Shown here piece after piece: positions 7,714-31,991 of a stretch of 32,039 nt of DNA. The notes below the pieces were generated by a model that worked only from the letters and a program-made list of their open reading frames with translations, was not told the DNA's origin and did not search any database. Positions within the stretch are counted from its first letter, which is position 1. The number at the start of each line of letters is the position of its first letter. This stretch comes from an uncultured Lachnospiraceae bacterium (lineage in GTDB: Bacteria; Bacillota; Clostridia; Lachnospirales; Lachnospiraceae): assembly GCA_947384285.1 (NCBI GenBank), contig CANDGI010000038.1, positions 1 through 32,039 of the forward strand, read 5' to 3'. Both the position numbers and the translations under genes were made by a program.

Positions 7714-9522
7714 ATGGCAAAGGAATTAAAGAAAAGAAGCCAGGCTGCCAGGGAAGATACCTGGGCAATTGAGGATTTATATGCATCGCCAGAATTGTTT
7801 TTGGAGGATGTTCGCAAATTGGAAGAGTTGGTGAAGAAATTAAAAGGTTTTACAGAAGAATACCTTATAGAAAGCGGTGTGCATCTGCTGGAATATTTTC
7901 AGGAATTGGAGAAAGCCACAATTATTCTGGATAGGGGGCTGTGTTATTCCCAGCGCAGCGTGGATGTGGACACAGGCAATGACCAGTATCAGCTATTGAG
8001 CGGAAAAATGATGGGGGTTTACCATAAGTTTGTGACTGTGACCGCGCCTGTGGATGCCTGGATTGCATCTATGGATGAGGAGAAAATACAGAAATTTTAT
8101 CAGGAGACGCCGAAGCTTACCGCCTATAAAGTAACGATTGACGACCTGCGCAGGTTAAAGGATCATACCCTTCCCTCGGAAATGGAGGAGCTTTTGGCTG
8201 CTTCCCAGGAAATGGGGGCGGCTATGGAAAAATCCTATAGTTTTTTGACGGATGCGGACTTTGAGCATCCAATGGTCAAGGATGAGACAGGGGAATGGGT
8301 AAAGGTGAGCGCGGGGCGGTTTATCCCTCTGCTGGAAAGCCGGGATAGAAACGTGCGGAAGGATGCTTTTTTTGCATATTACGATCGCTATGAGCAGTAT
8401 AAAAATACCTTTGCATCTTTGTATGAAGGGAAGGTGAAGTCTAATATTTTCTATGCGAAAGCCAGAAAATACAACTCTTCCATGGAGGCTGCGGTGGATG
8501 CCAGCAATGTGCCCAAGGAGGTGTATCGTAATCTGATTGAAGCGGTCAACGAAAATATGCATTACATGCACGAATACATGTCCCTGCGAAAGAAGCTGAT
8601 GGGCTTAGAGGAGCTTCATATGTATGATGTCTATGTGCCCATGGTGGCTAAGGAGACTGGGAAAATCACCTATGAGCAGGCTCAGGAGGAAATCATACAG
8701 GCGCTGCAGGTTCTTGGGGACGATTATGTAAGCGTATTGAAGGAAGGGTTTGCAAACCGCTGGATTGACAAATATGAGAATGAGGGGAAGAGAAGCGGCG
8801 CTTATTCTGCCGGATGCTATTCCAGCCATCCTTATGTGCTGATGAATTATCAGTATAACTTAGATTCTGAGTTTACCCTTGCCCATGAGATGGGGCATGC
8901 CCTCCATTCTTACTATTCGGCAAAGCATAACAATGTGTTTGACAGCGAGTATAAAATATTTGTGGCAGAGGTGGCTTCCACCTGCAACGAAGCCCTTTTG
9001 ATGGATTATCTTTTGAAGCATACAAAAGACAAAAAGAAAAAGGCTTATCTGATTAATCATTTCCTGCACCAGTTCCGCAGTACCTTGTACCGCCAGACCA
9101 TGTTTGCGGAGTTTGAGCTTTTGACCCACGAGATGGCGGAGGTGGGAAGGCCATTGACTGCGGAGTCGCTGAAAAAGCTTTACTATGACCTGAATGTGCA
9201 GTATTATGGAAAAGATGTGGTGATAGATGAGGAAATTGCCATTGAGTGGGCGAGAATCCCGCATTTTTATTATAATTTTTATGTATATCAATATGCCACC
9301 AGTTTTGCGGCTTCCATGGCACTTTCCAAAAAGATTTTGGAGCAGGGGCAGCCAGCGGTGGAGCGTTACCTGCAGTTTTTAAAAGGCGGGTGCAGCAAGG
9401 CGCCTATTGAGTTGTTGAAGGATGCAGGCGTGGATATGGCTGCGAAGGAGCCTGTCTGTGAAGCCTTGAAAATGTTCGGCGGGCTGCTTGAGGAAATGGA
9501 GGAACTATTCTGCCAGATTTAA
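7714..9522 (+). CDS. pepF: Oligoendopeptidase F (M3 family zinc metallopeptidase)
   Basis: Cytoplasmic zinc endopeptidase of 602 aa that cuts short peptides, probably in peptide turnover. The zinc motif HEMGH is at residues 391-395 (TLAHEMGHALHS), and the third ligand is expected among the glutamates of FVAEVASTCNEALL about 25 residues later. The preceding GAYSAGCYSSHPYVLMNY and the following HYNFYVYQYATSFAAS-like segment (FYYNFYVYQYATSFAAS) are PepF hallmarks. GGAG eight bases before ATG 7714 fixes the start; the frame extends to 7675 without a ribosome site. The last nine codons (EMEELFCQI and stop) are the first unit of a 54-bp repeat running into prfC. Confidence 0.93.
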   Translation: MAKELKKRSQAAREDTWAIEDLYASPELFLEDVRKLEELVKKLKGFTEEYLIESGVHLLEYFQELEKATIILDRGLCYSQRSVDVDTGNDQYQLLSGKMMGVYHKFVTVTAPVDAWIASMDEEKIQKFYQETPKLTAYKVTIDDLRRLKDHTLPSEMEELLAASQEMGAAMEKSYSFLTDADFEHPMVKDETGEWVKVSAGRFIPLLESRDRNVRKDAFFAYYDRYEQYKNTFASLYEGKVKSNIFYAKARKYNSSMEAAVDASNVPKEVYRNLIEAVNENMHYMHEYMSLRKKLMGLEELHMYDVYVPMVAKETGKITYEQAQEEIIQALQVLGDDYVSVLKEGFANRWIDKYENEGKRSGAYSAGCYSSHPYVLMNYQYNLDSEFTLAHEMGHALHSYYSAKHNNVFDSEYKIFVAEVASTCNEALLMDYLLKHTKDKKKKAYLINHFLHQFRSTLYRQTMFAEFELLTHEMAEVGRPLTAESLKKLYYDLNVQYYGKDVVIDEEIAIEWARIPHFYYNFYVYQYATSFAASMALSKKILEQGQPAVERYLQFLKGGCSKAPIELLKDAGVDMAAKEPVCEALKMFGGLLEEMEELFCQI

Positions 9523-9684
9523 GCGGTAAGTGATGAAGTAATGGTAGAGATGGAAGAACTATTCTGCCGGATTTAAGCGGTAAGTGACGAAGTAATGGTA
9601 GAAATGGAGGAACTATTCTGCCAGATTCAGGCGGTATAGGATGAAGTAGCGATAGAAATGGAGGAACTATTTTGCTGGATTTAG
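9493..9684. repeat. 54-bp tandem repeat, 3.5 copies, bridging pepF and prfC
   Basis: Units start at 9493, 9547, 9601 and 9655, each opening GA(A/G)ATGGA(G/A)GAACTATT. The first codes the pepF C-terminus. The last supplies GGAGG at 9660-9664 and the TTG start codon (9672) of prfC. The middle copies contain the same ribosome-site-like sequence followed by CTG instead of TTG. The period is 18 codons. Copies differ at several positions, so this array is older than the 62-bp one. Confidence 0.93.
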
Positions 9685-11264
9685 AAAAAGAGATAGAAAA
9701 GCGCAGAACTTTTGCTATTATTTCCCACCCGGATGCGGGGAAAACAACGTTGACAGAGAAATTCCTGCTGTATGGCGGAGCCATCAATCTTGCAGGATCT
9801 GTGAAGGGAAAAGCTACAGCCCGCCATGCGGTGTCTGATTGGATGGAAATTGAAAAGGAGAGGGGAATTTCTGTTACCTCTTCGGTGCTGCAGTTCAATT
9901 ACGATGGTTACTGCATCAATATTTTGGATACGCCGGGACATCAGGACTTTTCGGAGGATACCTACCGGACATTGATGGCGGCGGATTCTGCGGTGATGGT
10001 CATTGACGGTTCGAAGGGTGTGGAAGCCCAGACCAGGAAATTGTTTAAGGTGTGCGTCATGCGCCATATTCCGATTTTCACATTTATCAACAAGATGGAC
10101 CGGGATGCAAACGACACTTTTGAACTGCTGGATGAGATTGAAAAAGAGCTTGGGATTGCCACCTGCCCCATTAACTGGCCCATAGGCTCCGGAAAGAATT
10201 TTAAGGGAGTCTATGACCGGAATACCAGGAAGGTCAAAACCTTTTCTGATACGCTGAAGGGAACAAAGGAAGGGCTGGAAAAAGATATTGATGTGGACGA
10301 CCCGGCGTTGGCAGCGGAAATCGGGGAAGATGCTAAGGCGGTTCTGCTGGATGAGGTGGAACTTTTGGATGGGGCAAGTGCTGAATTTGACATGGAACTG
10401 GTGTCAAAGGGAGAGTTATCGCCTGTATTTTTTGGCTCAGCACTGACGAATTTTGGTGTGGAGACCTTTTTGCAGCATTTTCTGCAGATGACCTCATCCC
10501 CTCTTCCCAGAAATGCAGATGTGGGGCAAATTAATCCTTTTTCCCAGGATTTTTCTGCCTTTGTGTTTAAAATCCAGGCCAATATGAACAAAGCCCACAG
10601 GGACAGGATTGCATTTATGCGTATTTGTTCTGGGAAATTTGAGGCTGGCATGGAGGTTACCCACATCCAGGGGGAAAAGAAAATGCGCCTTTCCCAGCCC
10701 CAGCAGATGATGGCTCAGGAGCGGAAAATTGTGGAGGAGGCTTATGCCGGGGATATTATCGGTGTGTTTGACCCAGGAATTTTTTCGATTGGGGATACCA
10801 TCACCAATTCAGCTGGAAAATTTGCCTTCGAGGGCATCCCTACCTTTGCGCCGGAGCATTTTGCCAGGGTGCGCCAGGTAGATACCATGAAGCGCAAGCA
10901 GTTTGTGAAGGGAGTGAGCCAGATTGCCCAGGAGGGGGCGATCCAGATTTTCCAGGAGTATCACGGCGGGATGGAAGAAATTATTGTAGGAGTGGTAGGG
11001 GTATTGCAGTTTGATGTGTTGAAATACCGGCTGGAAAATGAGTACAATGTGGAAATCCGTCTGGAGAAGCTGCCTTACGAGCATATCCGCTGGATTGAAA
11101 ATAAGGAAGAGGTTGATGTGGAGCGGCTTTCTGGAACCTCTGATATGAAGAAGGTTCAGGATTTGAAGGGCAATCCATTGCTTTTGTTTGTGAATAGCTG
11201 GAGCGTGGGAATGACGTTGGACCGGAATGAGGGGTTGGTTTTGTCAGAGTTCGGGCGGAATTAG
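9672..11264 (+). CDS. prfC: Peptide chain release factor 3 (RF3)
   Basis: Translational GTPase of 530 aa that removes RF1 or RF2 from the ribosome after termination. GTPase motifs are intact: SHPDAGKTT (G1, about residues 18-26), RGISVTSS (G2), DTPGHQDF (G3, 86-93) and NKMD (G4, 140-143). RF3-specific stretches include GGAINLAGSVKGKATARHAV and, near the end, VGVLQFDVLKYRLENEY. Length matches RF3 (about 530), not EF-G. The start is TTG, positioned seven bases after GGAGG; no in-frame ATG is available upstream. Both features lie within the last copy of the 54-bp repeat. It lies 149 bases after pepF on the same strand and may be co-transcribed with it. Confidence 0.95.
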   Translation: MLDLEKEIEKRRTFAIISHPDAGKTTLTEKFLLYGGAINLAGSVKGKATARHAVSDWMEIEKERGISVTSSVLQFNYDGYCINILDTPGHQDFSEDTYRTLMAADSAVMVIDGSKGVEAQTRKLFKVCVMRHIPIFTFINKMDRDANDTFELLDEIEKELGIATCPINWPIGSGKNFKGVYDRNTRKVKTFSDTLKGTKEGLEKDIDVDDPALAAEIGEDAKAVLLDEVELLDGASAEFDMELVSKGELSPVFFGSALTNFGVETFLQHFLQMTSSPLPRNADVGQINPFSQDFSAFVFKIQANMNKAHRDRIAFMRICSGKFEAGMEVTHIQGEKKMRLSQPQQMMAQERKIVEEAYAGDIIGVFDPGIFSIGDTITNSAGKFAFEGIPTFAPEHFARVRQVDTMKRKQFVKGVSQIAQEGAIQIFQEYHGGMEEIIVGVVGVLQFDVLKYRLENEYNVEIRLEKLPYEHIRWIENKEEVDVERLSGTSDMKKVQDLKGNPLLLFVNSWSVGMTLDRNEGLVLSEFGRN

Positions 11265-20643: not shown

Positions 20644-21402
20644 ATGACATGTGAAATTCAAAAATTTGTTTGGTATATGAAAGAGGTTCGTAAGACATCT
20701 GACAATACAGTGGTATCTTATGAACGGGATTTGAGGAAAATGAGCCAGTTTTTTGTGGAGCAGGGAATGGACCAGGTAGGCCAGGTTACCGTTACAATGC
20801 TGAATGCTTATATTTTATTCCAGGAAAGGCAAGGGCGTAAGTCGTCCACCATTTCCAGGAGCGTGGCGGCGCTGAAAGCGTTTTTCTGCTATTTGTACAA
20901 AGAAGGGTACATAGAAGAAAATGTAGCGGAAGAATTAAAGGCGCCCCGGGTGGAGAAAAAGGAGCCTGATTATCTGACAAGGGAAGAAACGGCGCGGCTG
21001 CTGGGGGAGACGAAAGGAAAATCACCCAAGGAATTACGGGACAGCGCAATGCTGGAATTGCTGTATGCCACTGGAATCCGCGTGTCCGAATTGATTTCGC
21101 TAAAGATTTTGGATGTGAATTTAATCATGGAGTATATTATTTGCAGTGATGGGAACCGGGAGCGTATCGTTCCTTTTGGAAGAGAGGCAAAGCAGGCATT
21201 GGAACTATATCTGCGGGAAGGGCATCCTGTGCTGGCAGGAGAGAACAACCCTTATCTGTTTACCAATTGTTCCGGCCAGGTGATGAGCCGCCAGGGGTTT
21301 TGGAAATTGGTGAAGGGTTATGGCAGGAAGGCGGGGATTACAAGGGAATTAACGCCCCATATGTTAAAGCATTCTTTTGCCGTCCATTTATTCCGTCCGT
21401 AA
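20644..21402 (+). pseudogene. xerD: XerD-type tyrosine recombinase, C-terminally truncated and catalytically impaired
   Basis: Residues 1-250 align in order with XerD: core-binding domain (TVVSYERDLRKMSQFF, STISRSVAALKAFFCYLYKE), Arg146 in YATGIRVSEL, and the HxLRH box. However, the protein ends HMLKHSFAVHLFRP at 252 aa, about 45-50 residues short of the usual 295-300. The LGH histidine and nucleophilic tyrosine are therefore lost. In addition, the second catalytic Arg is Lys242 (HMLKH), and the active-site Lys region reads GNRERIVPF with Arg instead of Lys. A hairpin starts in the stop codon. Location beside spoIIM is the normal chromosomal place of xerD. It is probably unable to recombine DNA, though it could still bind it. 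Confidence 0.75.
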
Positions 21403-21500: not shown

Positions 21501-22532
21501 CTATTCATTCATTTCTGCAATATGATAAATCAATTCTTCTGATTCCTGCCAGCCCAGGCACGGGTCTGTGATCGATTTTCCATATACATGTTCCCCAACC
21601 TTTTGGCATCCAGGTTCCAGATAGCTTTCAATCATGACTCCTTTCACCATCTTCTTAATTTCCGGTGAGGTTCTCCGGTTGTGCATTACTTCTTTTACAA
21701 TCCGTATCTGCTGTTCATATTGTTTGTTGGAATTGGAGTGGTTGGAATCAATGATGGCAGCAGGATTTACAAGATCCATTTTGTCATACATCTGAATCAG
21801 GCGTTCCAGGTCTTCATAGTGATAATTGGGAATGCAGACGCCTCGTTTGTTCACAGCTCCCCGGAGAACCACATGGGTGAGAGGGTTTCCTGTGGTGCTT
21901 ACCTCATAGCCCCGGAATACAAAATGATGAGGATGCTGCCCGGCATATACCGAATTAAGCATGACAGAATAGTCTCCGCTGGTGGGATTTTTCATTCCGG
22001 CAGGAACGTCAAAGCCGCTGACGGTTAAGCGGTGGTGCTGGTCTTCTACGGAACGTGCTCCGATAGCAACGTAGGACAGCAGGTCTTCCACATAAGGCCA
22101 GTTTTCGGGGTAAAGCATTTCATCTGCTGCGGAAAGGCCGCTTTCTTCGATTGCGCGGATATGCATTTTGCGCATGGCAATGAGCCCCGCCAGCATATCA
22201 GGCCTTTTTTCTGGATCGGGCTGGTGGGCGATACCCTTGTAGCCTTCCCCGGTGGTACGTGGTTTGTTGGTATAGATACGAGGGACAATGACCAGCCGGT
22301 TCGCCGTCTTTTCCTGGACTTTGCACAGCCGGCTGATGTAGTCGCAGACAGCATCTTCATTGTCAGCAGAACAAGGGCCGATGATAACCAGGAATTTATC
22401 TGATCTGCCAGTGATAATATCCTGGACCATTTGATCCCGCTGCATTTTTATGGCGGCTGCCTTTGGGGATAAGGAATATTCTTGTTTGATTTCTTCTGGG
22501 CTTGGAAGCTGTTTTAAAAATGTAAAACTCAT
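21501..22532 (-). CDS. 3-deoxy-7-phosphoheptulonate (DAHP) synthase, class I AroFGH type
   Basis: First enzyme of the shikimate pathway (343 aa): condenses phosphoenolpyruvate and erythrose 4-phosphate. Diagnostic stretches are LVIIGPCSADNEDAVCDYIS, then RIYTNKPRTTGEGYKGI, GARSVEDQHHR and RGAVNKRGVCIPNYHYEDL, and IIDSNHSNSNKQ with the metal-binding His. It belongs to the AroF/AroG/AroH type, not the AroA/class II types. AAAGGAG before ATG 22532 decides the start; an upstream extension to 22589 lacks a ribosome site. It is divergent from the chorismate mutase-shikimate kinase gene, with separate promoters back to back. No leader peptide or riboswitch was recognised. Confidence 0.94.
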   Translation of the reverse strand: MSFTFLKQLPSPEEIKQEYSLSPKAAAIKMQRDQMVQDIITGRSDKFLVIIGPCSADNEDAVCDYISRLCKVQEKTANRLVIVPRIYTNKPRTTGEGYKGIAHQPDPEKRPDMLAGLIAMRKMHIRAIEESGLSAADEMLYPENWPYVEDLLSYVAIGARSVEDQHHRLTVSGFDVPAGMKNPTSGDYSVMLNSVYAGQHPHHFVFRGYEVSTTGNPLTHVVLRGAVNKRGVCIPNYHYEDLERLIQMYDKMDLVNPAAIIDSNHSNSNKQYEQQIRIVKEVMHNRRTSPEIKKMVKGVMIESYLEPGCQKVGEHVYGKSITDPCLGWQESEELIYHIAEMNE

Positions 22533-22594
22533 AATGATTCTCTCCTTTAAAATATATGTAAGTATCAATTTTTGAAGGAAATTTCCCATGGAAT

Positions 22595-23764: not shown

Positions 23765-25771
23765 TTAAATAAAATCTCGTTTGTCTAAAACGTTGAGGAT
23801 GTTCCGTGCCTCTTCCGTGCCTTCAATAATTCTTCTTGCCCGGACACTGTCCCCGATATTCATGATTTCTGTTTTTCCAGTATCGAAGCTTTCCTGCAGC
23901 TGCTTAAGGATTGGATTGTTTGCACGCATTCCAAGACATACGAAGCCATAATCAAAGGGAAGTTCTTCTTCTGTGCCGTCAGGATTCTTCACAAGGAAAG
24001 AAGCTTCCTTAACCTCTAAAAGTGCAGTGTTGGTAAGCTGTTTTACTCCATGCTTTTCCATTAAATTGAAGGTTCCTGTCTTGGATACCGGGTCGATTCC
24101 ATTTCCGATGATGGGCATCATTTCCACAATGCTTACATCCGCGCCCCGGGGAGCAAAGTATTCTACAACGTCTAAGCCTACGGCGCCGCCGCCGATTACT
24201 ACGACTTTTTTGCCGCTCATATCTTCTGGGTAATCTCCAGATACTACGTGGTTAATCATATTTAATATAGAAGAAACTTTGCCATTTTCTTTGTCAATCA
24301 CATCATGAAGCCCTTTGATTGGGGGCAGGAGAGGACTGGAGCCGGTAGCATTGACAATAATGTCAGGATGCAGGCTTTGGATTTGCTCAATCGTTGCCTC
24401 TGTATTTTTGAAAATAAACATGTTCTTCATTTTTTCCGCGCGATGAATCAGGTAGTTGGGGAAATCTGCCAGGCGGTTTTTATCTGGAATCTTTGAGATT
24501 TCTGCGGCTAAGCCGCCCAGGTATGGTTTTTTCTCGATGATAAATGTGGTGCATCCAACTTCAGCGGCGGTGCATGCAGCTTCCAAACCAGCAGTACCTG
24601 CGCCGATAACCACTACGTTGCACTGGCGTTTCACACGTTTCTTTTTATAATCTTCCCCTGTATTGACGCCGGGATTGATGGTGCAGCGGATGGGGCGGTT
24701 AATGCCAATCCGGTGTCCGGCACAGCCGATGTTGCAGGAAATACATTTGCGGATATCCGCTGTATCGCCGAATTCGACTTTATTTACCCATTCCGGGTCT
24801 GCAATCAGTCCGCGGCCGATACCGATAAGATCTGCATCCCCTCGTGCCAGGATGTCGTCTGCAATCCTGGGGTCACGGATATTTCCCATGGTAATGCAGG
24901 GCTTGCTGTAACGCTCTTTGACGGCCTTTGCCATATAGGAGCGCCATCCATCTGCCAGGTAATTGGCATCAATCTGATATTGGATGGAGCCGTTTAAGCC
25001 GGCAGAGACGTCGAACACATCCACTTCTTTTTCAAAATACTGCAGATATTCCAGGGCATCTTCCAATGTATTTCCGCCTTCCATAAATTCGTCGGCGCTG
25101 ATGCGGACAAAAATTGGGAAGAATGAGCCAACCTGCCTGCGGACTTCTTCGATTACCAGCTTGGCGAAACGGGCGCGGTTTTCCGGCGAGCCGCCAAATT
25201 CATCTGTCCGTTTGTTTGTTAACGGAGAAAGGAACTGGCTGAGAAGATAGGAGTGCCCGGCATGTATTTCTACTGCGTCAAATCCAGCTGTCTGCGCACG
25301 TTTTGCTGCTTTTCCGTATTTTTCCACAATCTCATAAATTTCTTCTTTGGTTAAGGGGCGCGGAATCTCGCCGCCTTCCTTAGAAGGAATATCGGAAGCG
25401 GATACTGGCTGTATGCCGGTACGCTGTGCCTGCGCAGAGGCGCCAGCATGGTTAATCTGGATGGCAATGCATGCGCCATGCTTATGTACGGTTTCACATA
25501 ATTTGTACAATCTGGGGATGTAGCTGTCGTGGTCAATGCGCAATTGAGTGGTTCCGTTAGATCCCTGAGGAGAAAATACGCTGGCATTCTCCACAATAAT
25601 CAGGCCTGTACCGCCTTTTGCGCGCTGCTCATAATAATTAATGTGCAGGAAACTCATTTCACCATTTTGTTCGCCGTAGTTGGTTCCCATTGGCGTCATG
25701 ACGATTCGGTTTTTCATGGTCATGCGTTTTACGGTAAATGGTTCAAAAATATGTTTGTATTCATTTTTCAT
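23765..25771 (-). CDS. NADH:flavin oxidoreductase, Old Yellow Enzyme/2,4-dienoyl-CoA reductase-like
   Basis: Predicted three-cofactor enoate or enone reductase (668 aa). Residues about 1-340 are an FMN-binding TIM barrel with EIHAGHSYLLSQFLSPLTNK, then FGGSPENR. A 4Fe-4S cluster motif follows, CISCNIGC with another Cys in PIRCTINP. The C-terminal half has two dinucleotide folds, VVVIGAGTAGLEAA (FAD) and VVVIGGGAVGLDVV (NADH). This layout is shared by FadH, 2-enoate reductases and bile-acid BaiC/BaiH-type enzymes. The natural substrate is unknown. It is divergent from a LysR gene and beside quinate/shikimate genes, so an alpha,beta-unsaturated shikimate derivative is a reasonable guess. A G-rich ribosome site precedes ATG 25771. 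Confidence 0.9.
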   Translation of the reverse strand: MKNEYKHIFEPFTVKRMTMKNRIVMTPMGTNYGEQNGEMSFLHINYYEQRAKGGTGLIIVENASVFSPQGSNGTTQLRIDHDSYIPRLYKLCETVHKHGACIAIQINHAGASAQAQRTGIQPVSASDIPSKEGGEIPRPLTKEEIYEIVEKYGKAAKRAQTAGFDAVEIHAGHSYLLSQFLSPLTNKRTDEFGGSPENRARFAKLVIEEVRRQVGSFFPIFVRISADEFMEGGNTLEDALEYLQYFEKEVDVFDVSAGLNGSIQYQIDANYLADGWRSYMAKAVKERYSKPCITMGNIRDPRIADDILARGDADLIGIGRGLIADPEWVNKVEFGDTADIRKCISCNIGCAGHRIGINRPIRCTINPGVNTGEDYKKKRVKRQCNVVVIGAGTAGLEAACTAAEVGCTTFIIEKKPYLGGLAAEISKIPDKNRLADFPNYLIHRAEKMKNMFIFKNTEATIEQIQSLHPDIIVNATGSSPLLPPIKGLHDVIDKENGKVSSILNMINHVVSGDYPEDMSGKKVVVIGGGAVGLDVVEYFAPRGADVSIVEMMPIIGNGIDPVSKTGTFNLMEKHGVKQLTNTALLEVKEASFLVKNPDGTEEELPFDYGFVCLGMRANNPILKQLQESFDTGKTEIMNIGDSVRARRIIEGTEEARNILNVLDKRDFI

Positions 25772-25881
25772 TGATGGTTACCCCCAAGTTTGTTTTATCG
25801 TGCCATATCTATATTCCCCGCTGCTATGCACAGGTGCAGATGCTGGCAGGGATGGCCAAAATATGGGTTTGAGAGGTTGTT

Positions 25882-25890
25882 AATATAGCA
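25882..25890 (-). promoter_or_regulatory. Extended -10 of the flavin oxidoreductase promoter
   Basis: Minus-strand TG, C, TATATT, immediately beside the inverted-repeat operator. The -35 position shows no consensus and is covered by the operator, as expected of an activator-dependent LysR target. Confidence 0.5.
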
Positions 25891-25920
25891 TACATCAGAA
25901 TACGGGCGGTTCTGATGTAT
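25890..25920. promoter_or_regulatory. Probable LysR operator: perfect 11-bp inverted repeat
   Basis: ATACATCAGAA (25890-25900) and TTCTGATGTAT (25910-25920) are exact inverted repeats around a nine-base spacer. The site lies between the divergent flavin oxidoreductase and LysR genes, covering the -35 region of both promoters. This is where LysR-type regulators bind to activate the divergent target and repress themselves. Confidence 0.8.
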
Positions 25921-25938
25921 TTCTGGTTTAAGTATAAT
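25910..25938 (+). promoter_or_regulatory. Promoter of the LysR gene
   Basis: TATAAT at 25933-25938, with a weak -35 (TTCTGA, 25910-25915) 17 bases upstream that coincides with the right operator arm, suggesting autorepression. It is about 130 bases before the start codon. Confidence 0.55.
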
Positions 25939-26066
25939 GGAGAAATAACGGAAAAACAAATTGGTATTTTTGTGGAAATCTATAGAAAATGTGCATGGGT
26001 TTTGGTATGATACTTGTATAAGGAGCCGGAAAAGCATTTTATTTTGGGAAAGGATATGTGCAGAGT

Positions 26067-26954
26067 ATGAATTTGAGTCAGCTTTATTATTTCGTAACAT
26101 TGGCAGAGACGGAGCATTATTCCAGGGCAGCAGAGATTTTGTCCATCACCCAGCCCAGCTTAAGCCATGCGGTTGGAAAGCTGGAGGAGGAGCTGGAAAC
26201 GAAGCTTTTTGAGAAAAAAGGGCGGAATGTTGTCCTGACAAAATACGGCAAGGTATTCCTGGAATATGCCACAGAGTCTTTGCAGTCCCTGGAGGTTGGG
26301 ATAAAGAAGACAAAGGCTATGACAGGCAGGAATTCCGGCGTGATTGACCTGGCATATATCTATACCCTTGGATTGGAATTTGTGCCGGGGCTGGTGAGAA
26401 GCTTTCTTAAGGACAATCCCCAGATGGATGTGCAATTCCGGTTTACGGTGGGAAATACCCAGGATATCATCCGCGGGCTGAAGGAGGAAAAATATGACGT
26501 GGCATTCTGCTCCCGGAGAGAAGAGGAGAGGCAGATTGTGTTTGAACCGGTGGCAGAGGAAAAACTGGTGGTGGTTGTGTCAAGGGAACATCCCCTGGCG
26601 GCAAAAGAAGATATTTCCTTGAAGGAGACAGAAAGCTATCCGCAGATATTTTTCACCAAATCCAGCGGGCTGCGCCCTACCATAGAAAAAATGTTCGAGA
26701 TGGCACAGGTTGTTCCAAAAATCGCTTATGAAATAGAAGAGGACAGCGCAATGGCGGGCCTTGCTGCAAAAAATTTTGGAATTGCGGTAATGCCGGAGGT
26801 TCCTGTGCTGAAATATTTGGATGTGAAGATACTGGATATTACCAATCCTGTGATTGAACGCTACATCTATATGGCGCAGATTAAGGATCAGTACCAGCCG
26901 CCGGTTCTAAAAAAATTTATGAAATATGTGCAGAATCACCAATTGAAAAAATAA
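26067..26954 (+). CDS. LysR-family transcriptional regulator
   Basis: DNA-binding regulator of 295 aa. The N-terminal helix-turn-helix is complete: LSQLYYFVTLAETEHYSRAA, EILSITQPSLSHAVGKLEEE, then LFEKKGRNVVLTKYGKVFLE. The rest is the two-lobed effector-binding domain (from GVIDLAYIYTLGLEFVPGLV), as in CynR/CysB-like regulators. ATG 26067 matches the usual LysR start; an in-frame GTG at 26058 sits only three bases from AGGA and is less likely. It is divergent from the flavin oxidoreductase and upstream of the dehydrogenase-carrier-dehydroquinase genes, so it probably controls both sides in response to a shikimate-like effector. Confidence 0.92.
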   Translation: MNLSQLYYFVTLAETEHYSRAAEILSITQPSLSHAVGKLEEELETKLFEKKGRNVVLTKYGKVFLEYATESLQSLEVGIKKTKAMTGRNSGVIDLAYIYTLGLEFVPGLVRSFLKDNPQMDVQFRFTVGNTQDIIRGLKEEKYDVAFCSRREEERQIVFEPVAEEKLVVVVSREHPLAAKEDISLKETESYPQIFFTKSSGLRPTIEKMFEMAQVVPKIAYEIEEDSAMAGLAAKNFGIAVMPEVPVLKYLDVKILDITNPVIERYIYMAQIKDQYQPPVLKKFMKYVQNHQLKK

Positions 26955-26971
26955 AAAAGGTGTTATATAAT
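26943..26971 (+). promoter_or_regulatory. Promoter of the quinate/shikimate dehydrogenase gene
   Basis: TTGAAA (26943-26948), 17 bases, TATAAT (26966-26971), starting within the last codons of the LysR gene. AGAGGTTGTTA at 26980-26990 just downstream also occurs near 25873 in the divergent LysR promoter region. Confidence 0.65.
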
Positions 26972-27065
26972 AGTTGCCAAGAGGTTGTTAGAGATTTAAC
27001 GAACGGGCAAGAAACAAATAGGAAAGATACAAGGATAATGACAAAAAGAAAGAAGGAAATTTATC

Positions 27066-27941
27066 ATGGCAGAGAGAATTACAGGACATACAGAACTTAT
27101 CGGATTGATGGCTTATCCAATCAGGCATTCAAGCTCACCGGCAATGCACAATGAGGCATTTGCATATCTTGGTCTGGACTATGCATATCTTGCTTTTGAA
27201 GTAGACAATGATACTTTGGAGGATGCTGTGAAGGGGCTTCGCGCATTGAAGATGGTTGGCTCCAATGTATCTATGCCCAACAAAACAGTCGTACATAAAT
27301 ATCTGGATAAATTATCACCGGCAGCAGAACTCTGCGGCGCAGTAAACACAATCGTGAATGAGAACGGCGTATTAACCGGGCATATCACAGATGGCATCGG
27401 ATATATGAAAGCCTTGAAGGATAACAATATTGACGTGATTGGCAAAAAAATGACAATCGTAGGCTCCGGCGGGGCAGCTACAGCCATTGAGGTCCAGGCA
27501 GCCCTTGACGGCGTAGCAGAAATGTCTATCTTCAATATTAAGGATAAATTCTGGGACAATGCCCAGGAGACGGTAAAGAAAATCAGTGAAAGGACAAGCT
27601 GCAAGGTTGCTTTGTATGATTTGGCAGATTTGGATAAGCTGAAAGAGGAAATTGCGGATTCTTATCTGTTTGCAAATGCAACAGGCATGGGAATGAAGCC
27701 TTTGGAGGGACAGACCTATATTCCTGATAAATCCTTCTTCCGCCCGGATTTAATTGTGACGGATGTTGTGTACTCCCCGCGTGAGACCGCAATGCTTAAG
27801 ATGGCAAAGGAAGTGGGCTGCAAGACCATGAATGGCATGGGCATGATGTTATTCCAGGGAGCAGCTGCTTTTGAAATGTGGACCGGAAAAGAAATGCCTA
27901 TTGAGCATATGAAAGAAGTTCTTGACATTAAGTACGAATAG
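27066..27941 (+). CDS. Shikimate/quinate dehydrogenase, YdiB-like
   Basis: NAD(P)-dependent oxidoreductase (291 aa) interconverting 3-dehydroshikimate and shikimate, and possibly 3-dehydroquinate and quinate. The substrate site shows YPIRHSSSPAMHN, catalytic Lys73 in NVSMPNK and Asp109 in HITDGIGY; the nucleotide loop is GSGGAATA (133-140). The wording SMPNK, LSPAAELCGAVNTIVNENG and TGMGMKPLE followed by MGMMLFQGAAAFEMWTGKE is closer to Escherichia coli YdiB than to biosynthetic AroE, from memory. AAGGAAA upstream supports ATG 27066. It is followed by an MFS carrier and type I dehydroquinase, the same partners as ydiB in E. coli, which argues for a role in uptake and use of cyclic polyol acids. 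Confidence 0.9.
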   Translation: MAERITGHTELIGLMAYPIRHSSSPAMHNEAFAYLGLDYAYLAFEVDNDTLEDAVKGLRALKMVGSNVSMPNKTVVHKYLDKLSPAAELCGAVNTIVNENGVLTGHITDGIGYMKALKDNNIDVIGKKMTIVGSGGAATAIEVQAALDGVAEMSIFNIKDKFWDNAQETVKKISERTSCKVALYDLADLDKLKEEIADSYLFANATGMGMKPLEGQTYIPDKSFFRPDLIVTDVVYSPRETAMLKMAKEVGCKTMNGMGMMLFQGAAAFEMWTGKEMPIEHMKEVLDIKYE

Positions 27942-27960
27942 AATGAAATAGAAAAGAAGC

Positions 27961-27989
27961 TTGACAATTGAATATAGTATATGAATAAT
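27961..27989 (+). promoter_or_regulatory. Possible internal promoter before the MFS gene
   Basis: TTGACA (27961-27966), 17 bases, AATAAT (27984-27989), 20 bases after the dehydrogenase stop. Confidence 0.45.
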
Positions 27990-28007
27990 AGCGGACGGTG
28001 CATGGCG

Positions 28008-28032
28008 CACTGGGTGTGCTTTTGCACCAGTG
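28008..28032 (+). promoter_or_regulatory. Leader hairpin touching the MFS ribosome site
   Basis: CACTGGGTG (28008-28016) pairs with CACCAGTG (28025-28032) with one bulged G. The right arm overlaps the first base of GGAGG (28032-28036), so folding could limit translation of the carrier. Confidence 0.45.
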
Positions 28033-28041
28033 GAGGGAAAA

Positions 28042-29229
28042 ATGAAGAAAAAGTATTTGTTTAGTGCACTGATTCTGTATTTGAATTATTTTATCCATGG
28101 GATTGGATGTTCGATTTTGAGCCAGCAGGTTGTGAAGGAGACATTGATTACCCAATGGGGAATTGACGATGTTATGCAGGTAACTGCAATTGCGGCTGCG
28201 CTGGGACTGGGACGTCTCATCTCACTGCCTTTTGCAGGGCCTTTGTCTGATAAGCTGGGACGCAGGATTTCTGTTTTAATCGGCGTGGCATCCTACGTCA
28301 TCTTTTTTGTAGGCATTGCATTTTCACCAAATATGCAGATTGCTTATGTGGCGGCGGTTCTTGGCGGCATTGCCAATTCCTTCCTGGATACGGCGACTTA
28401 TCCTGCGGTAGCGGAGATTATCTATGAGTATACGGGCATTGCAACCATGGGGATTAAATTTTTCATTTCGATTGCTCAGTTATTGATGCCTTTCTTCCTG
28501 GGCGTGTTTGCGGGAACAAAGATGTCATATCTGACCTTGCCATTGGTGGCAGGCATTGCGATTGCAGTTCTCGGCGTGCTGGCTGTTTTTATGCCATTGC
28601 CCCAGGAATCTGCCAGCGGCAAATCAGAATCCTTCATTGAGAATTTGAAAAATGCCCATTTTTCATTGGAAAGCGTTGCTTTGATTTTGATCGGATTTAC
28701 AAGTACAGCAACCTTTCAGCTTTGGCTTAACTGTGCCCAGACATTCGGAAAAGAAATTGCTGGTATTCCATCAGAGACCGTTTCCATCATGCAGACCTAT
28801 TATTCAGCCGGAACGATGGTCGCGCTTGTGGTGACGAGTATTTTGATTACGAAATTCAAACAGGTAAGGTTTCTTGTGATTTACCCGGCAATCTCATCCG
28901 TGATGCTGGTGCTTGTGTACCTGATTAAGACGCCCATGATTTGTTATGTAGGCGCTTTTGTGCTTGGATATGCGGCAGCAGGCGGCGTGCTGCAGATGGC
29001 GACTGCAACGGTAAACGACCTGTTCCCGAAGATTAAGGGAACCATCACAAGCCTTGTTATGATTGCATCCAGCTTGTGTAATTATACGATTCTCAGTGCT
29101 GCATCAAAAATGACAGCTATGAATGTAATTGTGATGAACCTTGTGATTACCATTATAGGCGTTCTTCTTGCAGTATTTGTAAATTTAAGATATGGAACCT
29201 TGTTGGAGAATGCAGAGAAATCAAAATAA
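28042..29229 (+). CDS. MFS transporter, YdiN/YdiM-like (probable quinate/shikimate-type carrier)
   Basis: Twelve-helix major facilitator (395 aa). The conserved loop between helices 2 and 3 is present as GPLSDKLGRR. The segments FIHGIGCSILSQQ, LGLGRLISLPFAG, GGIANSFLDTATYPAVAE and FVLGYAAAGGVLQMATATVN resemble E. coli YdiN, whose gene adjoins ydiB-aroD. No direct evidence of substrate. GGAGG at 28032-28036 selects ATG 28042 over the in-frame GTG 28030, which overlaps that site. It lies between the dehydrogenase and dehydroquinase genes; 15 bases separate its stop from the aroD start. Confidence 0.88.
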   Translation: MKKKYLFSALILYLNYFIHGIGCSILSQQVVKETLITQWGIDDVMQVTAIAAALGLGRLISLPFAGPLSDKLGRRISVLIGVASYVIFFVGIAFSPNMQIAYVAAVLGGIANSFLDTATYPAVAEIIYEYTGIATMGIKFFISIAQLLMPFFLGVFAGTKMSYLTLPLVAGIAIAVLGVLAVFMPLPQESASGKSESFIENLKNAHFSLESVALILIGFTSTATFQLWLNCAQTFGKEIAGIPSETVSIMQTYYSAGTMVALVVTSILITKFKQVRFLVIYPAISSVMLVLVYLIKTPMICYVGAFVLGYAAAGGVLQMATATVNDLFPKIKGTITSLVMIASSLCNYTILSAASKMTAMNVIVMNLVITIIGVLLAVFVNLRYGTLLENAEKSK

Positions 29230-29244
29230 ATGGGAGGGAACAGA

Positions 29245-30006
29245 ATGAATCCGGTAGTTGTAAGAAATGTGAAAATAGGGGAAGGAATTCCTAAAATCTG
29301 TGTGCCGATTGTTGGTGTGACAAAGGAAGACATTATCAAAGAAGCAAAAACTTTTGATGCGATTCCGGTGGATGTGGTAGAGTGGCGTGTGGACTGGTTT
29401 GAGCACGTATTTGAGATTGAAAAGGTGAAAGAGGTGTTGAAAGAGCTGCGGGAAGCATTGAAGGAGACACCGATTCTTTTTACCTTCCGTACTGCCAAGG
29501 AAGGCGGAGAAAAATCCATTGATCCGAAAGCTTATGCGGAATTAAACAAAGCAGCTGCAGAAAGCGGATACGTTGATCTGGTTGATGTGGAAGCATTTAC
29601 AGGGGATGAGATTGTAACAGAGGTGATAGAAGCGGTACATCAGCATGGAGTCAAAGTGGTTGCCTCCAACCATGATTTCGACAAGACTCCAGAGAAGGAT
29701 GATATTGTAGGAAGGCTCTGCAAGATGCAGGAGCTTGGCGCAGATATTCCGAAAATTGCTGTGATGCCTCAGAGCAAGGAGGATGTTTTGACCTTGTTAG
29801 CGGCAACAGAAGAAATGAACAGAAAGCATGCGGATCGTCCGATTATTACCATGTCCATGGCGGGTACAGGGGTTATCAGCCGTCTTTGTGGCGAAGTCTT
29901 TGGTTCCGCGCTGACGTTTGGGGCTGCAAGGAAGGCTTCTGCCCCAGGGCAGATGGGAGTGGAAGATCTGGCACAGGTGCTTTCTCTTTTACATAAAAGC
30001 TTGTAA
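29245..30006 (+). CDS. aroD: 3-dehydroquinate dehydratase, type I
   Basis: Schiff-base dehydroquinase (253 aa) interconverting 3-dehydroquinate and 3-dehydroshikimate. Lys170 (DIPKIAVMPQS) forms the imine and His143 (ASNHDFDKTP) is the general base, both at the residue numbers I recall for E. coli AroD. EWRVDWFE and LFTFRTAKEGG bind substrate, and PGQMGVEDL closes the site. GGGAGG favours ATG 29245 over the in-frame ATG 29230. Last gene of the dehydrogenase-carrier-dehydroquinase run, followed by a terminator. It could serve biosynthesis as well as catabolism; no other dehydroquinase is in the window. Confidence 0.95.
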   Translation: MNPVVVRNVKIGEGIPKICVPIVGVTKEDIIKEAKTFDAIPVDVVEWRVDWFEHVFEIEKVKEVLKELREALKETPILFTFRTAKEGGEKSIDPKAYAELNKAAAESGYVDLVDVEAFTGDEIVTEVIEAVHQHGVKVVASNHDFDKTPEKDDIVGRLCKMQELGADIPKIAVMPQSKEDVLTLLAATEEMNRKHADRPIITMSMAGTGVISRLCGEVFGSALTFGAARKASAPGQMGVEDLAQVLSLLHKSL

Positions 30007-30159: not shown

Positions 30160-30714
30160 ATGAAAAAAGTGCTGTTGTGGCTGAATGACAGCCTTGAGGA
30201 ATTTCTTATGATTGCCAGCTTGGTTTTGATGACAATGATTATGGGGATACAGGTGTTTTCCCGGTATGTGCTGGGCGCATCTCTTTCCTGGTCTGAGGAG
30301 CTGACAAGATATATTTTTGTATGGGCTGGATTTCTAAGTGTTAGCTATTGTACGAAAAAATGTGTTTCTATTAAAATCGAACAATTTGTGGCTATGTTTC
30401 CCAGACGGGGAAAAGCAGTTTTTAAACTGGTAAACCATACGTTTGAATTAATCTTCTTTTTCTATCTGATGCCTTTTGCTGTGAAATATCTGATGTCTGC
30501 AGTGGAGAGCGGGCAGGTCAGCCCCGCTTGCCAGATTCCCATGTATTATGTACAGGCGGCTCCGCTTGTTAGCTTTCTTCTGGTAGCCATAAGGATTATG
30601 CAAAGGTGGTATATCGAGCTTCAGGTAATCCGAAAAGGATATGAGGAGCCAGGGAAAGGGAATCCGAAAGGGAAAACCGCAAAAAGAGAGGAGGCGCCAA
30701 AATGTCAGCAGTAA
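30160..30714 (+). CDS. TRAP transporter small membrane subunit (DctQ family)
   Basis: Four-helix membrane subunit (184 aa) of a tripartite ATP-independent periplasmic-type transporter, which imports organic acids using an ion gradient and an extracytoplasmic binding protein. DctQ features: FSRYVLGASLSWSEELTRYI, then FVWAGFLSVSYCTKK, with helices near residues 15-35, 50-65, 90-108 and 125-145, and a charged C-terminal tail. AGGAGG precedes the ATG. It overlaps the large-subunit gene by 13 bases. No clear promoter was found in the 100 bases upstream. Confidence 0.92.
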   Translation: MKKVLLWLNDSLEEFLMIASLVLMTMIMGIQVFSRYVLGASLSWSEELTRYIFVWAGFLSVSYCTKKCVSIKIEQFVAMFPRRGKAVFKLVNHTFELIFFFYLMPFAVKYLMSAVESGQVSPACQIPMYYVQAAPLVSFLLVAIRIMQRWYIELQVIRKGYEEPGKGNPKGKTAKREEAPKCQQ

Positions 30715-31991
30715 TTGTTTTTATCATTTTTGTGATCTGCCTGGTGATTGCGATTCCGGTTTCCATTTCCCTGGGCATCGTATCCGTTCTTCCAGGCGCT
30801 TTTGATGCATCCTTTACAGCATCCGGGCAGTTTGTCATACGCTCTATGCTGGGCGGGATTGACAGCTTTCCTCTTCTGGCAGTGCCGATGTTTGTGCTTT
30901 CCGGCATTGTGATGGCCAGGGGCGGGATTTCCAAAAAGCTGTTTGATGTGTTTGCGTATTTTCTGGGCAAACGGACCGCGGGGGTTCCCTGTGCAGTGAT
31001 TGTAACCTGCCTGTTTTATGGAGCCATTTCTGGTTCTGCACCGGCAACGGTAGCGGCAGTAGGGAGCATGACGATTCCGATTTTGACGAAGCTTGGGTAT
31101 GACAAGGTTTTTTCTACCGCAGTGGTGGCGGTATCTGGCGGCCTGGGGGTAATCATTCCTCCAAGCATTCCATTTATCATGTACGGTATGGCGTCTGGGG
31201 CGTCAGTCAGTGACCTGTTTCTTTCAGGGATTATTCCAGGATTGTTAATCAGCGGCTTGCTCATGGTATATGCCATCTATTATTGCAGGAAAAATGGCGA
31301 GGATAAAGAGAAAATCCATGCAGTTGTGGGAGAACTCCACGAAAAAGGGCTTCTGGCTGTGCTTAAGGACAGCTTTTTTGCATTGTTAAGCCCGGTGATT
31401 ATTTTGGGCTGCATCTATTCCGGCATTGCTTCCCCCACGGAAGCGGCAGTCATTTCTGTATTTTACGCACTGATTGTCAGCCTGTTTATCTATCGGACCA
31501 TTCAATTTAGGGATGTTTGGGGAATCATGGAAGAGTCTGTCCGCACATACGCGCCGATTCTGTTTATTTTAGCCACCTCTGTGGCTTTTTCCAGGGTGCT
31601 GACGCTGATGCAGGTGCCCCAGGCGGTCAGCGGATGGATTCTTGCGCATTTTACCAATCGGATTGCGCTGCTTTTGGTTATCAACCTGTTCCTGCTGATT
31701 GTAGGCATGGTTATGGACACTACGCCGGCGATTTTGATTTTAACGCCGATTCTTCTTCCGATTGTGGAAGCGGTGGGCATGCATCCTGTTCATTTTGGAG
31801 TTATGATGGTGGTTAATCTGGCCATTGGGTTTGTTACGCCGCCCATAGGGGTCAACCTGTTTGTGGCAAGCTCTTTAACGGATATTCCGGTGATGAAGAT
31901 TGCAGGAAAGGCAATGCCTATGATTTTTTATTTTTTGATCGCTCTGCTTCTTTTGACGTTTATACCGGCAATCAGCATGGCGTTTATTTAG
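30702..31991 (+). CDS. TRAP transporter large membrane subunit (DctM family)
   Basis: Large permease subunit (429 aa) with about 12 helices, forming the ion-coupled channel of the TRAP system. DctM hallmarks: FPLLAVPMFVLSGIVMARGG, then FYGAISGSAPATVAAVGSMT, GLGVIIPPSIPFIMYG, IASPTEAAVISVFYAL, GMVMDTTPAILILTPILLPI and GFVTPPIGVNLFVAS. Length is normal. GAGGAGG inside the end of the small-subunit gene sets the ATG. The substrate-binding protein is not in the window; it may follow past 32039. Being next to the quinate/shikimate genes, the cargo might be a hydroxylated carboxylic acid, but this is inference. Confidence 0.94.
   Translation: MSAVIVFIIFVICLVIAIPVSISLGIVSVLPGAFDASFTASGQFVIRSMLGGIDSFPLLAVPMFVLSGIVMARGGISKKLFDVFAYFLGKRTAGVPCAVIVTCLFYGAISGSAPATVAAVGSMTIPILTKLGYDKVFSTAVVAVSGGLGVIIPPSIPFIMYGMASGASVSDLFLSGIIPGLLISGLLMVYAIYYCRKNGEDKEKIHAVVGELHEKGLLAVLKDSFFALLSPVIILGCIYSGIASPTEAAVISVFYALIVSLFIYRTIQFRDVWGIMEESVRTYAPILFILATSVAFSRVLTLMQVPQAVSGWILAHFTNRIALLLVINLFLLIVGMVMDTTPAILILTPILLPIVEAVGMHPVHFGVMMVVNLAIGFVTPPIGVNLFVASSLTDIPVMKIAGKAMPMIFYFLIALLLLTFIPAISMAFI

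What the first reader, a model, noticed from the sequence alone, without database searches (positions are those of the whole stretch)
23765..30006. Candidate inducible module for quinate/shikimate (or related enoate) use, combining a flavin enoate reductase with YdiB-MFS-AroD
Seen: a divergent flavoprotein/LysR pair, then a YdiB-like dehydrogenase, a YdiN-like MFS carrier and a type I dehydroquinase, with TRAP subunits next. Known: E. coli keeps ydiN-ydiB-aroD together, and Listeria has a LysR (QuiR) shikimate-induced set which, as I recall, includes a similar NADH:flavin oxidoreductase. Inferred: quinate or shikimate is imported and oxidised or dehydrated to 3-dehydroshikimate. That compound is both an enone and an enoate, a suitable substrate for an OYE/2-enoate-reductase-type enzyme. 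The cell could thus use these plant acids as electron sinks, a reductive route rather than protocatechuate formation.
Basis: partly seen in the sequence, partly recalled or inferred. Interest (0 to 1): 0.7.

Follow-up and report, generated by a model that had tools for sequence, protein, structure and literature searches.

The report
Gut bacterial quinate/shikimate-reducing gene module
A set of genes that gut bacteria appear to use to take up the plant acids quinate and shikimate and, by our inference, to chemically reduce them rather than turn them into aromatic compounds; the gene set is real and widely conserved, but the reduction itself has not been tested.

Summary
The window's OYE-type flavoprotein, LysR, YdiB-like dehydrogenase, MFS, type I dehydroquinase and TRAP permeases form a module that recurs across many genera. 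Around the flavoprotein's own clade a YdiB-type gene lies nearby in 49 of 49 loci of at least 19 kb and AroD in 45 of 49; around 20 related but different OYE genes the figures are 1 and 0. Listeria carries LysR|OYE-SDH-aroD and Klebsiella OYE-SDH-MFS-aroD|LysR, with OYE 55-62% identical. The LysR is closest, among solved structures, to Lmo0488, which I recall as QuiR, Listeria's shikimate-responsive regulator. A conserved box precedes the flavoprotein gene. In Ligilactobacillus salivarius a non-homologous fumarate/urocanate-reductase-type flavoprotein sits beside SDH and aroD, which favours C=C reduction. Best reading: a qui1-type operon with an added TRAP importer, whose flavoprotein reduces 3-dehydroshikimate. 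Against the simple reading: in 11 of 24 carrier genomes the module's AroD is the only dehydroquinase found while AroB is present, so it very likely serves biosynthesis too. No enzyme activity was shown.

The parts
23765..25771 (-). OYE/2,4-dienoyl-CoA-reductase-type FMN/FAD/4Fe-4S flavoprotein (668 aa), proposed 3-dehydroshikimate (or shikimate) C=C reductase
25953..25988 (-). Conserved box (CTATNNATTTN5AAAATATNNATTTGTTTT) upstream of the flavoprotein gene, candidate LysR operator
   Evidence: 57 of 76 upstream regions score at least 17 of 24 against 5.8% of Markov-resampled sequences; 34 of 34 with a divergent adjacent LysR; the motif was refined on these same regions
26058..26954 (+). LysR-type regulator, QuiR-like (ATG probably 26067)
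   Evidence: best solved structure 5TED 'Lmo0488 protein' (effector domain) 175 bits, next 97.5 bits; 48% to the LysR beside the Listeria flavoprotein
27066..27941 (+). YdiB-type quinate/shikimate dehydrogenase
   Evidence: NF001313 533 bits (cut-off 431); best PDB 3TNL, then 3t4e and YdiB 1vi2/1npd; 66% to the Listeria and 67% to the Klebsiella module SDH
28030..29229 (+). MFS carrier, candidate quinate/shikimate importer
   Evidence: PF07690; an MFS of 40% or more in 44 of 49 long loci; 32% to the MFS in the Klebsiella operon
29230..30006 (+). Type I 3-dehydroquinate dehydratase (AroD)
   Evidence: PF01487 283 bits; TIGR01093 260 bits, cut-off 139; Glu/His/Lys motif regions shared with solved AroD (residue roles recalled)
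30160..30714 (+). TRAP small permease DctQ
   Evidence: PF04290 109 bits; found in 36 of 49 long loci
30702..31991 (+). TRAP large permease DctM; DctP would follow beyond the contig end
   Evidence: PF06808 367 bits; DctP lies next to DctM in L092/L093; DctP Pfam PF03480 on L035
22739..23554 (+). Chorismate mutase-shikimate kinase fusion next to the module (biosynthetic neighbour)
   Evidence: PF01817 + PF01202; near the OYE clade in 19 of 49 long loci
21501..22589 (-). DAHP synthase, neighbour in the nearest relatives only
   Evidence: PF00793, TIGR00034; found in 3 of 80 loci, L092-L094

Best explanation
This is a qui1-type operon of a Lachnospiraceae-like gut bacterium with a TRAP importer added. 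A QuiR-like LysR senses shikimate-type acids and controls a divergon: the flavoprotein on one side, and LysR-YdiB-MFS-AroD-TRAP on the other. Quinate or shikimate enters by MFS and TRAP. YdiB oxidises the C3 hydroxyl with NAD+; AroD removes the C1 hydroxyl of dehydroquinate as water; both routes meet at 3-dehydroshikimate. The OYE-type flavoprotein then reduces its C1=C2 bond with NADH, and a ketone reduction (YdiB running backwards, or another dehydrogenase) would give dihydroshikimate for export. Net: quinate + 2[H] -> dihydroshikimate + H2O, or shikimate + 2[H] -> dihydroshikimate, an electron sink. The order is that of bile-acid 7-dehydroxylation: oxidise, eliminate, reduce the enone. Shown here: the genes, their families, their conservation as a set, and a conserved upstream box. 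Inferred: ligand, cofactors, substrate, direction, product and physiological role. AroD is probably shared with aromatic amino acid biosynthesis in many carriers.
For: Linkage far above control (49/49 YdiB-type and 45/49 AroD against 1/20 and 0/20), kept through gene-order changes and across phyla (Listeria, Klebsiella; OYE 55-62%, SDH 66-67%, AroD 50-62%). In 38 genomes with AroD loci examined, an MFS lies in the AroD locus of 12 of 15 genomes with this OYE (two of the 12 are the second MFS type) and 0 of 23 without; TRAP 11 of 15 and 0 of 23. LysR closest to Lmo0488. Box upstream. OYE catalytic His/His/Tyr and Fe-S cysteines kept in 36 relatives and an ene-reductase fold. A non-homologous FMN_bind/FAD_binding_2 reductase takes the flavoprotein slot in L. 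salivarius. 3-Dehydroshikimate is the cyclohexenone of the shikimate set (established chemistry). Lactobacilli are recalled to reduce quinate/shikimate to dihydroxycyclohexanecarboxylate (Whiting and Coggins; recalled, not read).
Against: No activity, induction or metabolite data. In 11 of 24 carrier genomes the module's AroD is the only dehydroquinase found while AroB is present, so part of the module very likely works in biosynthesis. In 6 of 25 family loci the OYE sits by CM-SK and/or YdiB with no AroD near, in 2 by none of these. The Listeria qui operons are recalled as protocatechuate-forming. In Paenibacillus polymyxa the gene stands alone. One family copy lacks both H170 and Y175 and another lacks H170. 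OYE relatives of this architecture include dehydrogenases (trimethylamine, histamine), so the direction is not fixed by fold. The box is missing in 19 of 76 regions.
Confidence: 0.55

Rival explanations
1. Salvage into aromatic amino acids: imported quinate/shikimate is fed through YdiB, AroD and the neighbouring CM-shikimate kinase to chorismate, and the flavoprotein has a side role.
For: AroD is the only dehydroquinase found in 11 carriers with AroB; CM-SK is beside the module in the window and in 19 of 49 long loci; only one SDH was found in the window's genome.
Against: Gives no job to an ene-reductase that is conserved with the set down to Klebsiella and Listeria; three carriers with a module YdiB (G104, G138, G232) have another SDH next to or near AroB; CM-SK also lies near AroD in genomes without this OYE, so it may be an older neighbour.
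Confidence: 0.15
2. Aromatisation: 3-dehydroshikimate is turned into protocatechuate (or gallate), as recalled for the Listeria qui operons, and the flavoprotein is auxiliary or oxidative.
For: Orthologous set in Listeria; a second cluster in relatives and in Listeria holds a TIM-barrel protein with a weak QuiC match (22.5 bits; Lmo2234 326 bits).
Against: That TIM protein was found in 8 of 24 carrier genomes and not in the window's; the qui1-type locus itself shows no such gene in Listeria, Klebsiella or the window; dehydration to protocatechuate needs no flavin.
Confidence: 0.12
3. The flavoprotein reduces the hydroxycinnamate half of chlorogenate (caffeate and the like), and the rest of the module handles the quinate half.
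For: Caffeoylquinate is a common dietary source of quinate (general knowledge); 2-enoate reductases of this architecture reduce cinnamates (recalled).
Against: Among the neighbour clusters seen in four or more loci none looks like an esterase (named by eye except where scanned); R78, D80, N107 and D268 are invariant in all 25 family copies and, with N72 and Q266, shared by the Listeria, Klebsiella and Paenibacillus copies but by none of nine OYE2/control sequences, which would suit a small hydroxylated acid (inference).
Confidence: 0.1
4. The flavoprotein acts on shikimate itself (a 2-enoate) rather than on the enone 3-dehydroshikimate.
For: Shikimate is the recalled inducer of QuiR; the AroD-less arrangements by CM-SK are compatible.
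Against: A ring enone is the easier OYE substrate (general knowledge); co-location with YdiB and AroD, which make the enone, is among the strongest seen.
Confidence: 0.08

Closest known systems
Listeria monocytogenes qui1 operon (lmo0488-lmo0491; QuiR). Operon name, locus numbers and function recalled; genes seen in L192
   Same: LysR divergent from flavoprotein, then SDH and aroD; identities 48, 61, 66 and 62%; LysR nearest to Lmo0488
   Different: Window adds MFS and TRAP; YdiB/AroD lie on the LysR side, not downstream of the flavoprotein; no homolog of the TIM-barrel protein of Listeria's second cluster found in the window's genome
Klebsiella pneumoniae leuABCD-linked OYE-SDH-MFS-aroD | LysR-MFS locus (L194)
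   Same: Same four genes in the order OYE-SDH-MFS-aroD with a LysR; OYE 55%, SDH 67%, MFS 32%, AroD 50%, LysR 45%
   Different: No TRAP in the stretch shown; different phylum; function not known to me
E. coli ydiN-ydiB-aroD (recalled)
   Same: YdiB-type dehydrogenase (1npd/1vi2 match), MFS, AroD
   Different: No flavoprotein: no DNA match of the Klebsiella gene in 5,426 E. coli genomes (nucleotide search only)
Ligilactobacillus salivarius megaplasmid cluster (L197)
   Same: LysR (39%), SDH (60%), AroD (44%) and a flavoprotein in one cluster
   Different: Flavoprotein is FMN_bind + FAD_binding_2 (fumarate/urocanate-reductase type), not OYE; also SDR and TIM protein
BaiCD / 2-naphthoyl-CoA reductase / 2,4-dienoyl-CoA reductase flavoproteins
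   Same: Domain order and fold; best named NCBIfam model is BaiCD
   Different: Far below the BaiCD cut-off (474 of 825 bits); own clade, with intact family copies at 57% or more and the next matches at 39% or less

Membership tests
Listeria-type qui1 operon (QuiR regulon) | LysR of the QuiR type next to the operon | tested here: met
   5TED (Lmo0488) best by 175 against 97.5 bits; 48% to the LysR of the Listeria locus
Listeria-type qui1 operon (QuiR regulon) | Flavoprotein, SDH and type I DHQase orthologs together | tested here: met
   61, 66, 62% and same locus
Listeria-type qui1 operon (QuiR regulon) | Shikimate-dependent transcription | not testable with these tools
   Only a conserved upstream box; the Listeria upstream region scores 19 of 24, Klebsiella 18, Paenibacillus 15
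Old yellow enzyme / DCR-type ene-reductase | Oxidored_FMN domain with substrate-carbonyl His pair and proton-donor Tyr | tested here: met
   PF00724 285 bits; H170, H173, Y175 invariant in 36 sequences (residue roles recalled). In the 25 family copies of A1, H173 is invariant, H170 is replaced in 2 and Y175 in 1
Old yellow enzyme / DCR-type ene-reductase | 4Fe-4S Cys motif and C-terminal FAD/NAD(P)H domains | tested here: met
   C343, C346, C350, C363 invariant; PF07992
BaiCD bile-acid enzyme | Score over the curated cut-off | tested here: not met
   474.4 bits, cut-off 825
YdiB-type quinate/shikimate dehydrogenase | Closer to YdiB and Listeria SDH than to AroE | tested here: met
   NF001313 533 bits (over its cut-off); PRK12749 quinate/shikimate dehydrogenase 340.8 (cut-off 349); TIGR00507 aroE 208 (cut-off 200, so also passed); PDB order 3tnl, 3t4e, 1vi2, 1npd
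YdiB-type quinate/shikimate dehydrogenase | Activity on both quinate and shikimate with NAD+ | not testable with these tools
   none
Protocatechuate-forming quinate/shikimate pathway | 3-dehydroshikimate dehydratase present | tested here: inconclusive
   The Lmo2234-type protein was not found in G000 but was in 8 of 24 carriers; G000 is 83% complete and other dehydratase families were not sought

The most novel reading that the evidence does not exclude
Gut Firmicutes carry a two-stage, bile-acid-like reductive dehydroxylation of quinate. Stage 1 (this module: YdiB-AroD-OYE1) removes the C1 hydroxyl and yields dihydroshikimate. Stage 2 (the OYE2-YdiB2-TIM cluster that is also found in Listeria and lies beside stage 1 in several gut genera) uses the TIM protein not as a protocatechuate-forming dehydratase but as an IolE-like second dehydratase, followed by OYE2, to give 3,4-dihydroxycyclohexanecarboxylate, the product recalled for lactobacilli and a step towards the cyclohexanecarboxylate that the host turns into hippurate.
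Probability: 0.2. Interest if true: 0.8.

Novelty: new variant of a known kind. Interest (0 to 1): 0.55.

Why it matters
Quinate and shikimate are abundant in fruit, coffee and vegetables, and gut microbes are recalled to turn quinate into reduced cyclohexane acids that end as urinary hippurate; as far as I know the genes are not assigned. If the flavoprotein reduces 3-dehydroshikimate, this gene set names candidate organisms (Coprococcus comes, Roseburia inulinivorans, Blautia, Anaerostipes, Mediterraneibacter and others) and gives single-gene tests. It would also give a function to an enzyme that sits, as far as I know, unexplained in Listeria and Klebsiella loci, and would show that the oxidise-eliminate-reduce logic of bile-acid dehydroxylation is used on plant acids.

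Tried and rejected
Chance neighbourhood: rejected by the paralog control. Membership in BaiCD, bilirubin reductase or mycofactocin OYE families: all under their cut-offs. Module as a plain biosynthetic cluster: not excluded as a shared role, kept as a rival. A dedicated catabolic AroD: not supported in general, because type II DHQase was found in only 2 of 24 carriers; the window's genome is one of the two. Box before ydiB: none (best 13-14 of 24).

Caveats. Box: first drawn from the window and four relatives (L092-L095), then generalised after I had seen the 76 regions and tested on those same regions; the four relatives are among the 76 and the loci are not independent; so the figures are optimistic. 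Sampling: one search kept the best 80 of 380; thresholds were set by hand, and YdiB at 40% and MFS at 40% also admit the second SDH and MFS types (stricter counts: 44 and 39 of 49); the AroD loci are 40 of the listed places, mostly top-scoring; the present/absent sets were typed from the output, leaving out partial matches (G025) and one MFS at 31% (L069). That G000 is Lachnospiraceae-like rests on the names of its relatives.

Papers: all 10 searches used. By the titles and abstract openings listed (lists were capped), I saw none on a flavoprotein reducing 3-dehydroshikimate or on the Listeria QuiR study; that library lacks most subscription journals and preprints, so this is no proof of absence. 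The one paper opened was PMC8706239 (passages): it uses 'dihydroshikimate' in a muconate route, not this reaction. A second structure job and plain Foldseek searches were not used.
Full report
WHAT IS THERE. The window is one whole contig (G000:C38) of a genome reported as 83% complete. DAHP synthase and a chorismate mutase-shikimate kinase fusion flank it. In the held genome the window's SDH is the only one found, its type I DHQase the only one of type I, and a type II DHQase lies on another contig; an AroB is present.

IT TRAVELS WITH YdiB AND AroD. Of the 25 family loci, 17 have AroD within the stretch fetched; 6 have CM-SK and/or YdiB but no AroD (in L077 only a CM-SK end at the contig edge); 2 have none of these (L073, 15 kb; L081, a 7-kb contig). 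Among 80 named loci the counts are YdiB 71, LysR 73, AroD 63, MFS 60, DctQ 51, DctM 49, DctP 48, CM-SK 25; in the 49 of at least 19 kb: 49, 49, 45, 44, 36, 36, 36 and 19; in 20 control loci around paralogous OYEs: YdiB 1, LysR 2, others 0. Eight of the 80 have none of YdiB, AroD or CM-SK: six are on contigs of 3-10 kb, two are Hespellia stretches of 12 and 17 kb. The four long loci without AroD are L100, L123, L166 and L167. Conversely, among 38 genomes behind 40 AroD loci, an MFS in the AroD locus was seen in 12 of 15 genomes with this OYE and 0 of 23 without (Fisher p 1.7e-7; two of the 12, L043 and L050, are the second MFS type); TRAP in 11 of 15 and 0 of 23 (p 1.1e-6). Gene order varies while content is kept: OYE next to YdiB, next to AroD, or divergent from LysR; in Sarcina ventriculi it is AroD-YdiB-MFS-OYE. 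Across 398 genomes drawn from the phylum only 4, the window's own among them, have a match at E 1e-140 or better, so the gene is far from universal.

NAMED RELATIVES. Listeria monocytogenes: LysR | flavoprotein-SDH-aroD, 48/61/66/62% identical. Klebsiella pneumoniae: leuABCD then flavoprotein-SDH-MFS-aroD and an opposing LysR, 55/67/32/50% and LysR 45%. Paenibacillus polymyxa: the gene alone. From memory, Listeria's locus is lmo0488-0491, the QuiR-controlled qui1 operon (Prezioso and colleagues 2018, recalled; not seen in the listing), described as induced by shikimate and leading to protocatechuate. The tool outputs independently give Lmo0488 as the nearest solved LysR.

A SECOND CLUSTER. In 11 loci (two probably of one species) an OYE2 (about 33% to the window's) sits with a second SDH in 11, a TIM-barrel protein in 10 and an MFS in 10 (in two of these the MFS is only 23-34% alike). 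Listeria has the same set, LysR | TIM-OYE2-SDH-MFS-MFS, elsewhere in its chromosome, and the TIM protein's best solved structure is Lmo2234. Its NCBIfam hit to QuiC is only 22.5 bits. It was found in 8 of 24 carrier genomes and not in the window's.

THE STRONGEST HINT FOR REDUCTION. In Ligilactobacillus salivarius plasmids the slot beside SDH and aroD holds no OYE but an FMN_bind + FAD_binding_2 flavoprotein of the fumarate/urocanate-reductase family (28 records carry it; the neighbourhood was read in one record). Two unrelated C=C-reducing families in the same context argue that the step is an alkene reduction. It is an argument by analogy: members of both superfamilies can also work as dehydrogenases.

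REGULATION. Between LysR and the flavoprotein lies a box conserved in the nearest relatives. A 24-position version reaches 17 or more in 57 of 76 upstream regions against 5.8% of resampled ones, in 34 of 34 with a divergent adjacent LysR and 23 of 42 without (Fisher p 1.4e-6); the window scores 23, Listeria 19, Klebsiella 18, Paenibacillus 15. The motif was refined on the same regions and relatedness inflates the figures.

WHAT SPEAKS AGAINST A SIMPLE CATABOLIC READING. Type II DHQase was found in 2 of 24 carriers, AroB in 21 of 24. In 16 of 24 carriers a single type I DHQase is all that was found; in 11 of these it is the one in the module, and all 11 have an AroB match. There AroD very likely serves biosynthesis as well. 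SDH counts per genome range from 0 to 3; in G104 and G138 a separate SDH lies beside AroB and in G232 within 3 kb of it, which leaves the module's YdiB free; in G148 the one SDH found is beside AroB and its module has none. AroD occurs in 179 of 299 genomes of the family, mostly without this OYE, so the reductive branch looks added to an existing aro neighbourhood.

MECHANISM (INFERRED). Quinate or shikimate -> 3-dehydroshikimate by YdiB and AroD (established chemistry of the families) -> reduction of the C1=C2 bond by the flavoprotein with NADH -> ketone reduction -> dihydroshikimate. For quinate this is a net C1 dehydroxylation by oxidation, elimination and enone reduction, the logic of bile-acid dehydroxylation; the nearest named model, BaiCD, fits in kind though far below its cut-off.

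VERDICT. Observation confirmed; interpretation well supported as context, unproven as chemistry, and in need of the correction that AroD is probably shared. A new variant (TRAP-equipped, gut-anaerobe) of the qui1-type operon, interest 0.55.

Noticed in passing
L043, L050, L074, L109, L124, L128, L158, L160, L165-L167; Listeria L198: A second OYE-SDH-TIM-MFS cluster, in most loci with its own LysR, matching a second Listeria cluster in gene content, often beside the first module.
   Followed up: partly
L197:9001-14094: L. salivarius plasmid cluster with a fumarate/urocanate-reductase-type flavoprotein in place of the OYE, plus an SDR.
   Followed up: partly
L058, L070, L082, L088: Zinc-type medium-chain dehydrogenases stand near OYE-AroD; no YdiB was found in the stretch in three of the four (L070, L082, L088), so they may take its place.
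   Followed up: no
L165:14135-15517, L166:12092-13441, L158:13431-14774; L147:4375-5739, L160:5907-7007: Other transporters near the module in loci where no TRAP genes were found: a ~450-aa membrane protein (weak MFS_MOT1 match; only the L165 copy was scanned, the others look alike by eye) and Sodium:dicarboxylate symporters (PF00375 in L147 and L160).
   Followed up: partly
L049 (G025) 9317-10713: AroD at 81% between partial matches to DctM and MFS: looks like a decayed module that kept AroD.
   Followed up: no
window 20644-21402: XerD-like recombinase (named by eye) that ends early after an HxLxHxF motif; no continuation seen in the two other frames of the next 130 bases.
   Followed up: partly
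G005:C37:1872262-1874252 and C40:2474-4989: Flavoprotein gene in pieces with stops or a frame change, in a genome with no type I or II DHQase and no AroB match.
   Followed up: no
L075, L076, L078, L079: Flavoprotein beside the CM-shikimate kinase without AroD or YdiB in the stretch; two of these four genomes (G145, G296) also showed no AroB match.
   Followed up: partly
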